DNA from: Acidilobus saccharovorans 345-15
Lineage (GTDB): Archaea > Thermoproteota > Thermoprotei_A > Sulfolobales > Acidilobaceae
Direction: 5' to 3'
Assembly: GCF_000144915.1 (NCBI RefSeq)
Contig: NC_014374.1
Location: 930,001-994,000, forward strand
DNA length: 64,000 bases
Part shown: piece by piece, positions 9,367-22,702 of the stretch
How positions within the stretch are numbered: position 1 is the first letter of the stretch
Layout: each line of letters begins with the position of its first letter
Program-made: the position numbers and the translations under genes
The notes under the pieces: model-generated
The model's input: only the letters and a program-made list of their open reading frames with translations
Databases searched by the model: none
What the model was told of the DNA's origin: nothing

Positions 9367-9447
9367 GGTGAAATCAACCTACATGGCAGTATTGCACTCT
9401 ACCATTATTATGATAATAAATTAAAAGCACTATGCTAAGGGCGAAGG

Positions 9448-9522
9448 GGCCCGGGCCGGGATTTGAACCCGGGACCTCCGGGTCCACAGCCCGGCGCTCT
9501 AGCCAGCTGAGCTACCCGGGCC
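9448..9522 (-). tRNA. trnH: tRNA-His (GTG)
   Basis: Full cloverleaf on the minus strand. The acceptor is GCCCGGG/CCCGGGC, with an encoded extra G at position -1 facing discriminator C73, the histidine identity pair. The D arm is GCTC...GAGC, the anticodon stem is CCGGG/CCCGG with loop CTGTGGA (anticodon GTG), and the T arm is CCGGG-TTCAAAT-CCCGG. There is no intron and CCA is not encoded. Confidence 0.97.
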
Positions 9523-22423: not shown

Positions 22424-22473
22424 CGCGCGCCCCTAGATAATTTAAGTAGTCAAAGCAGTAGATATCGCATAAG

Positions 22474-22481
22474 CTTATAAG
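22474..22481 (+). promoter_or_regulatory. TATA box for initiator tRNA
   Basis: CTTATAAG, preceded by an A-rich BRE-like stretch, predicts a transcript start near 22504. That is just before the left arm of the inverted repeat around the tRNA. Confidence 0.55.
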
Positions 22482-22518
22482 CTGCATAGATGGCCTGTTG
22501 CTAAAAGGGCAAAGGGAG

Positions 22519-22544
22519 GCGGGGTAGGGCAGCGGGGTAGGGCA
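22519..22544 (+). repeat. 13-bp tandem duplication at the tRNA 5' end
   Basis: GCGGGGTAGGGCA occurs twice in tandem (22519-22531 and 22532-22544). The second copy is nucleotides 2-14 of the mature tRNA (acceptor 5' strand, TA, D-stem 5' strand and the next A). The first copy lies mainly in the leader, its last base being nucleotide 1. Confidence 0.95.
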
Positions 22545-22604
22545 GCCTGGTAGCCCGCGGGGCTCATAACCCCGAGGTCGGTGGTTCAAATCCACCCCCC
22601 GCTA
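22531..22604 (+). tRNA. Initiator tRNA-Met (CAT)
   Basis: 74-nt cloverleaf. The acceptor AGCGGGG/CCCCGCT has the A1-U72 pair and the anticodon stem CGGGG/CCCCG has the three G-C pairs that mark archaeal initiators. The loop is CTCATAA (anticodon CAT), the T arm GGTGG-TTCAAAT-CCACC, and A73 the discriminator. There is no intron and no encoded CCA. A duplicated copy of its 5' strand lies directly upstream. Confidence 0.95.
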
Positions 22605-22702
22605 TAACCCTTTGCCCGTTGCGCTCCTCTGGCCTGGGTTGCCTACAGGCTTACCGACTAGGCGTTTATTCTCGAGGACGCAGGTTCAGAGACGGTGGAG
22701 CC

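What the first reader, a model, noticed from the sequence alone, without database searches (positions are those of the whole stretch)
22519..22544. Tandem 13-bp duplication of the 5' end of initiator tRNA
Seen: GCGGGGTAGGGCA is repeated head to tail so that the leader carries a second copy of the acceptor 5' strand and D-stem 5' strand. Either copy could pair with the acceptor 3' strand; using the upstream one would replace A1-U72 by a G-U pair and insert 13 nt in the D region. This sets up two competing precursor folds and possibly two RNase P sites for an essential tRNA.
Basis: partly seen in the sequence, partly recalled or inferred. Interest (0 to 1): 0.7.

Follow-up and report, generated by a model that had tools for sequence, protein, structure and literature searches.

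The report
Initiator tRNA leader mirrors acceptor stem
The short repeat in front of this archaeal start-tRNA gene is a local form of a conserved element: in many relatives the same sequence, at the same distance, can pair with the end of the transcript to form a second outer stem around the tRNA that starts every protein, which suggests an undescribed layer in how this essential tRNA is made.

Summary
The repeat is real: GCGGGGTAGGGCA at 22519-22531 and 22532-22544, the only perfect head-to-tail duplication with a unit of 10-30 bp in the window. It overlaps tRNA-iMet (22531-22604). Two other assemblies of the genus carry it unchanged, so it is not an assembly error. Only part is conserved: GCGGGG ending exactly 6 nt before A1, in 72 of 147 sampled genomes of the order. 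In three genomes scanned in full, the only other tRNA with such a copy at that offset is tRNA-Gln(UUG) of this genus, which copies its own acceptor. In most relatives the trailer carries CCCCGCC, usually followed by RCCA, able to pair with the leader copy as an outer acceptor-like helix. This holds even where the initiator gene is split: in 11 of 11 split loci the 3' half keeps CCCCGCC. The spacer TAGGGC lengthens the match to 13 only in this genus. Best reading: the 5' strand of a terminal clamp helix of the initiator precursor. Its function is inferred, not tested.

The parts
22473..22480 (+). TATA-like box GCTTATAA; predicted start of transcription about 27 nt downstream (around 22500-22507)
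   Evidence: Weight-matrix scan, -58 relative to A1; in most relatives the box peaks at -48 to -43, so the leader is about 10 nt longer in this genus. Start site is inferred.
22507..22516 (+). 5' strand GGGCAAAGGG of the leader-trailer helix of this genus
   Evidence: Perfect 10-bp complement of 22608-22617 (p=0.003 by shuffling); all four species of the genus have a different perfect helix here: GGGCAAAGGG/CCCTTTGCCC, GGGCGAGGG/CCCTCGCCC, GGCAAGGGG/CCCCTTGCC, GGCAAGGACCT/AGGTCCTTGCT
22519..22531 (+). Copy 1 of the repeat: conserved leader element GCGGGG (22519-22524), spacer TAGGGC (22525-22530), tRNA A1 (22531)
   Evidence: GCGGGG ends exactly 6 nt before A1 in 72 of 147 genomes of the order; spacer variable
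22532..22544 (+). Copy 2 of the repeat: tRNA positions 2-14 (acceptor 5' strand, U8 A9, D-stem 5' strand, A14)
22531..22604 (+). Initiator tRNA-Met(CAU), intronless, ends at discriminator A73, CCA not encoded
   Evidence: ARAGORN, Rfam RF00005 68.2 bits
22597..22603 (+). Acceptor 3' strand CCCCGCT, contested by copy 2 (A1-U72, native) and copy 1 (G22518.U22603)
   Evidence: Partition function at 37, 60 and 80 C
22608..22617 (+). 3' strand CCCTTTGCCC of the leader-trailer helix; the trailer element CCCCGCC of the relatives is absent here

Best explanation
The repeat is the local form of a conserved leader element of the initiator tRNA in this archaeal order. Shown by comparison: (G)GCGGGG, a copy of the tRNA's acceptor 5' strand, sits exactly 6 nt before A1. 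In most relatives that have it, it is the 5' strand of a predicted terminal leader-trailer helix whose 3' strand, CCCCGCC followed mostly by RCCA, resembles the acceptor 3' end, so the precursor carries a second acceptor-like helix around the tRNA. Shown: in split initiator tRNA genes the two strands lie on separate half genes and remain complementary. Shown: in the window's genus the trailer copy is absent, a 9-11 bp complementarity just upstream takes its place, and the leader copy remains; the spacer TAGGGC matches the D arm and extends the identity to 13. Inferred: the helix clamps the ends of the primary transcript, helps the intron-rich or split precursor assemble and survive at high temperature, and leaves a short A-rich single strand beside the RNase P site. 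Inferred: the unpartnered copy in this genus is either a remnant or an alternative partner for the acceptor 3' strand that delays 5' processing.
For: Spacing fixed at 6 (77 gap-6 matches against 35 over the other 12 gap lengths; 72 genomes by my count); the spacing-constrained scan gave 72 contigs, all Thermoproteota, mostly labelled Desulfurococcales, Acidilobaceae or Pyrodictiaceae. CCYCGCC occurs in the first 40 nt of 57 of 78 trailers, 4.4 expected in shuffles, followed by RCCA in 39 of 58. RNAalifold on 26 precursors chosen for having the element returns the cloverleaf plus this helix; 98.4% of cells paired against 48-74% when slid. L025 keeps the helix by a double change (GGCGGAG/CUCCGCC), L020 has a different perfect helix at the same place (UGGGGCCG/CGGCCCCA). 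11 split loci with 12-18 bp linker duplexes, several with protein-size ORFs between the halves: all keep CCCCGCC on the 3' half. TATA boxes put the start of transcription near the start of the helix strand. RNase P RNA is present in the window's genome.
Against: The 7-bp helix is nearly invariant, so there is little covariation: one double change, two G-U changes, one register change. Flanking positions do not covary (p 0.91 and 0.84). Some lineages keep GCGGGG without CCCCGCC (L010, L122, L198, L199, Sulfolobaceae-like L284-L286), so the leader copy has some constraint beyond this helix. Within one genome the iMet leader-trailer helix is not unique in strength (second of 45 in G000). No transcript data for any of these genomes were found, so transcript ends and processing are inferred.
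Confidence: 0.6

Rival explanations
1. One reading: the leader copy is kept to compete with the tRNA's own acceptor 5' strand for the 3' strand, giving two precursor folds, one of which hides the RNase P site.
For: In this genus the alternative fold dominates in silico; GCGGGG is kept where the trailer partner is gone; where the trailer partner is absent the copy is sometimes exactly AGCGGGG (4 of 13), never where it is present (0 of 56); tRNA-Gln(UUG) of the genus copies its own acceptor GCCGGG at the same spacing in three species.
Against: Most relatives have a better partner in the trailer, and L025 and L020 keep that helix while breaking the copy. Secondary-structure energies omit tertiary contacts and modifications. 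The Gln case may be a single event.
Confidence: 0.2
2. DNA-level element: a G-rich start region needed for promoter escape or factor binding at the initiator tRNA promoter.
For: In most relatives the TATA box places the start of transcription near GGCGGGG.
Against: In this genus, and in L288, the TATA box lies about 10 nt further upstream while the element keeps its distance from the tRNA; the trailer complement and its presence on split 3' halves are unexplained; other tRNA leaders of the genome lack such a start region.
Confidence: 0.08
3. Neutral replication slippage or chance in a GC-rich leader.
For: The extension TAGGGC+A beyond the conserved core is found only in this genus; leaders there are GC-rich.
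Against: Core and spacing are conserved over many families; expected own-acceptor copies are 0.24-0.45 per genome over all offsets 7-30 and all tRNAs.
Confidence: 0.07
4. Remnants of neighbouring initiator tRNA gene copies: the leader copy is a stump of a 5' end and the trailer CCCCGCC-RCCA a stump of a 3' end, kept by accident or later recruited.
For: The trailer element looks like a tRNA 3' end with RCCA in 39 of 58, and in some trailers (L012, L015, L018, L110) it is preceded by GCGGGG.
Against: Long conservation with exact spacing and retention on split halves need selection. It concerns origin rather than function and could be true together with the best explanation.
Confidence: 0.05

Closest known systems
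Leader-trailer pairing in precursor tRNAs (extended acceptor stems, studied with bacterial RNase P, PMC9433436)
   Same: Leader and 3' flank of a pre-tRNA pair and change access to the RNase P site
   Different: There the pairing directly extends the acceptor at N-1 to N-3 and inhibits cleavage; here a separate 7-bp copy of the acceptor lies 6 nt away, conserved across much of an order and largely specific to the initiator
Processing stems of archaeal pre-rRNAs (leader-trailer helices with bulge-helix-bulge motifs)
   Same: A helix joining the two flanks closes off an RNA domain to be excised
   Different: No bulge-helix-bulge by inspection; one side has 6 nt and the other 4 to more than 30 nt
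Split and permuted archaeal tRNAs (PMC3218864)
   Same: Same group of archaea; many initiator genes here are split, with complementary linkers at the break
   Different: The described linkers pair at the splice junction; the element here pairs the outer ends of the tRNA and occurs in intact genes too

Membership tests
Pre-tRNA leader-trailer helix | Leader and trailer complementary beyond chance and conserved between species | tested here: met
   57 of 78 trailers against 4.4 expected; 98.4% paired cells; four different helices in the window's genus
Pre-tRNA leader-trailer helix | Covariation of the pairing | tested here: inconclusive
   One double change, two G-U, one register change, relocated helices in the genus; flanking positions do not covary
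Pre-tRNA leader-trailer helix | Both strands present in the transcript | not testable with these tools
   Only TATA-based inference
Bulge-helix-bulge splicing substrate | Two 3-nt bulges on opposite strands separated by a 4-bp helix | tested here: not met
   By inspection of G000, L012 and L112: 6-nt (or 14-nt) strand opposite 4 to 30 nt, no central 4-bp helix
tRNA gene without RNase P leader (leaderless, as in Nanoarchaeum) | No leader and no RNase P | tested here: not met
   RNase P RNA found in G000 and 52 of the other 59 genomes; TATA box at -58
Integration site scar at a tRNA gene | Repeat of a tRNA end at the far side of an inserted element | tested here: inconclusive
   The copies abut head to tail with nothing between, and the core is conserved over families; no search for integrase genes around the locus was made

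The most novel reading that the evidence does not exclude
The initiator tRNA precursor of this order is a strand-exchange device: two or three copies of the acceptor 5' strand (leader, tRNA and, in some, trailer) and one or two copies of the 3' strand (tRNA, trailer) trade partners to time or regulate maturation of the one tRNA that limits translation initiation.
Probability: 0.15. Interest if true: 0.8.

Novelty: new variant of a known kind. Interest (0 to 1): 0.55.

Why it matters
Initiator tRNA is essential, and in these archaea its gene is often broken by introns or split. A conserved outer copy of its acceptor stem, kept even when the two ends are on different genes, would give a concrete handle on how such precursors are held together and matured at high temperature, and on why the initiator is treated differently from other tRNAs.

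Tried and rejected
Assembly artefact (same 13+13 bp in two other assemblies). Chance. Bulge-helix-bulge or splicing of the repeat as an intron (no motif). A general property of all tRNAs (three genomes scanned: at offset 13 only iMet, and Gln(UUG) in this genus). A G-quadruplex (the four-tract motif is not shared by the relatives, so it cannot explain the conservation). Extension of the helix beyond 7 bp (no covariation at -14 or -15). Occurrence outside the order: among 300 genomes of the phylum the only match outside was not a tRNA; this pattern would miss initiators with a different acceptor. Literature searches for a described initiator leader-trailer element in these archaea gave none in the titles, abstracts and passages I looked at in the held library.

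Full report
Observation. The window reads GCGGGGTAGGGCA twice head to tail at 22519-22544. ARAGORN and Rfam place an intronless tRNA-Met(CAU) at 22531-22604; its A1-U72 pair and GGG/CCC anticodon stem mark it as the initiator (general knowledge). The repeat is the only perfect head-to-tail duplication with a unit of 10-30 bp in the window. Two independent assemblies of the same genus carry it unchanged (L002, L004). One of these contigs is 56,142 bp, the length of a record named Acidilobaceae archaeon UBA162. The window's own genome is one contig of 1,496,453 bp, by length probably Acidilobus saccharovorans (memory, not tested).

What is conserved. In relatives the block that stays is GCGGGG, ending exactly six bases before A1 of the initiator tRNA; the six bases between vary. 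A scan of 147 genomes of the order with gaps of 2-14 listed, by my count, 77 matches with gap 6 against 35 spread over the other 12 gap lengths; 72 genomes have the gap-6 form. One or two of the 77 lie outside tRNA genes. One initiator leader has gap 7 (L189). A spacing-constrained scan of the named genome collection gave 72 contigs, all Thermoproteota and mostly labelled Desulfurococcales, Acidilobaceae or Pyrodictiaceae. Among 300 genomes of the phylum the only match outside the order was not a tRNA. Some members of the order lack the element (Caldisphaera-like L021-L023, L009, L017). The spacer is mostly pyrimidine-A-A/G-A/C-A-pyrimidine; in this genus it is TAGGGC or CGGAGC, and TAGGGC equals tRNA positions 8-13, which stretches the match from 6-7 to 13. 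The spacers of tRNA-Gln(UUG) in the same genus (TGAGGC, TAGGAC, TGACGC) look alike although that tRNA's D arm differs, so the D-arm likeness is probably incidental.

The partner. In 57 of 78 trailers long enough to judge, CCYCGCC occurs in the first 40 bases, against 4.4 expected in shuffled trailers, and in 39 of 58 it is followed by RCCA. It is the complement of the leader GGCGGGG. Together they would form an outer helix that looks like a copy of the acceptor stem with its 3' tail. RNAalifold on 26 precursors chosen for having the element returns the cloverleaf plus this helix, and 98.4% of its cells are paired against 48-74% when the partner is slid by 1-3 columns. The helix hardly varies, so covariation is thin: L025 keeps it by a double change (GGCGGAG/CUCCGCC), L027 and L099 by G-U, and L020 has another perfect helix in the same place (UGGGGCCG/CGGCCCCA). 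Positions outside the seven pairs do not covary.

Split genes. Several initiator genes in these relatives look split: complementary linkers of 12-18 bp at the break, TATA-like boxes before several of the 3' halves and, where the halves are more than 1 kb apart, protein-size ORFs between them. In all 11 such loci the 3' half carries CCCCGCC in its trailer and the 5' half carries GGCGGGG in its leader. The two strands of the outer helix then lie on different half genes and still match. I regard this as the strongest evidence that the pairing itself is under selection. For the loci with halves only 250-375 bp apart a long intron is not excluded.

The window's genus. Here CCCCGCC is missing. Instead each of four species has its own perfect helix of 9-11 pairs just upstream of GCGGGG: GGGCAAAGGG/CCCTTTGCCC in the window (22507-22516 with 22608-22617), GGGCGAGGG/CCCTCGCCC, GGCAAGGGG/CCCCTTGCC and GGCAAGGACCT/AGGTCCTTGCT. 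The TATA box lies about 10 bases further upstream than in most relatives, so the longer leader is probably transcribed. Within this one genome such complementarity is not unique (second of 45 tRNAs); the weight comes from its persistence across the genus.

With the relocated helix formed, a nearest-neighbour partition function gives the leader copy, not the tRNA's own strand, as partner of the acceptor 3' strand (0.9-1.0 at 37 and 80 C). In relatives with the trailer copy this mispairing is near zero; most relatives without any copy fold natively. The model lacks tertiary contacts, modifications and proteins and also misfolds many relatives' acceptors, so it shows only that competition is possible. 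Two facts favour some role of the copy itself: lineages without CCCCGCC keep GCGGGG, and tRNA-Gln(UUG) of this genus, another tRNA with A1-U72, carries GCCGGG, a copy of its own acceptor, at the same spacing in three species. RNase P RNA is present, so a leader is expected to be removed.

Mechanism. Most likely the element is the 5' strand of a clamp that ties the two ends of the initiator precursor, useful for an RNA that is often interrupted or split and must fold at high temperature, while the fixed six-base A-rich spacer keeps the RNase P site single-stranded. In bacterial RNase P, leader pairing right at the cleavage site is inhibitory (PMC9433436), which fits a spacer being kept open. 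These functional steps are inferred.

Limits. Transcript ends are inferred from TATA boxes. The locus collection is partly selected by a pattern that requires the spacing, so proportions are not prevalence; one search allows any gap from 2 to 14 but requires the exact acceptor sequence. The trailer count includes one genus member whose own relocated helix strand fits the pattern (L002). No published description of this element was found in the held open-access library, which lacks most subscription papers.

Noticed in passing
L062, L068/L291, L072, L074, L084, L093/L326, L109, L115, L126, L196/L327, L294: Apparently split (trans-spliced type) initiator tRNA genes in uncultured relatives: halves 250 to 1440 bp apart, 12-18 bp complementary linkers, TATA-like box before several 3' halves, sometimes ORFs between. 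The table in PMC3218864 lists a split initiator for Nanoarchaeum equitans and a permuted one for Thermofilum pendens.
   Followed up: partly
G000 tRNA-Gln(TTG), L146; also L149, L150: tRNA-Gln(UUG), also an A1-U72 tRNA, has its own acceptor strand copied at the same offset: GGCCGGG-TGAGGC-AGCCGGG, in three species of the genus; tRNA-Gln(CUG) does not.
   Followed up: partly
window 9446-9521 (-) and flanks, L036: tRNA-His has a 10-bp leader-trailer complementarity GCTGAGGGCG/CGCCCTTAGC in this genome; it is not among the strongest in G003, so probably not conserved.
   Followed up: partly
L032: tRNA-Thr(GGT) leader is a perfect hairpin GCTGGGGGC-CAAAA-GCCCCCAGC directly before the tRNA, and the trailer TGGCCCCCAGT can also pair with it.
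   Followed up: no
L012, L018, L110, L111 trailers: In Ignicoccus-like trailers the tRNA 3' strand is followed by a further acceptor 5' copy, for example CCCCGCT-ACCA-AGCGGGG in L012, a possible hairpin that would hide the CCA end in its loop.
   Followed up: no
L051 (G000) and L222 (G003): tRNA-Val(TAC) leaders carry GGGCCCG, a copy of their own acceptor strand, 24-25 nt upstream in both species.
   Followed up: no
L029, L030, L063, L064, L292, L293, L297, L301, L302: Initiator tRNAs with apparent introns in the T arm and in the anticodon arm, some with more than one.
   Followed up: no
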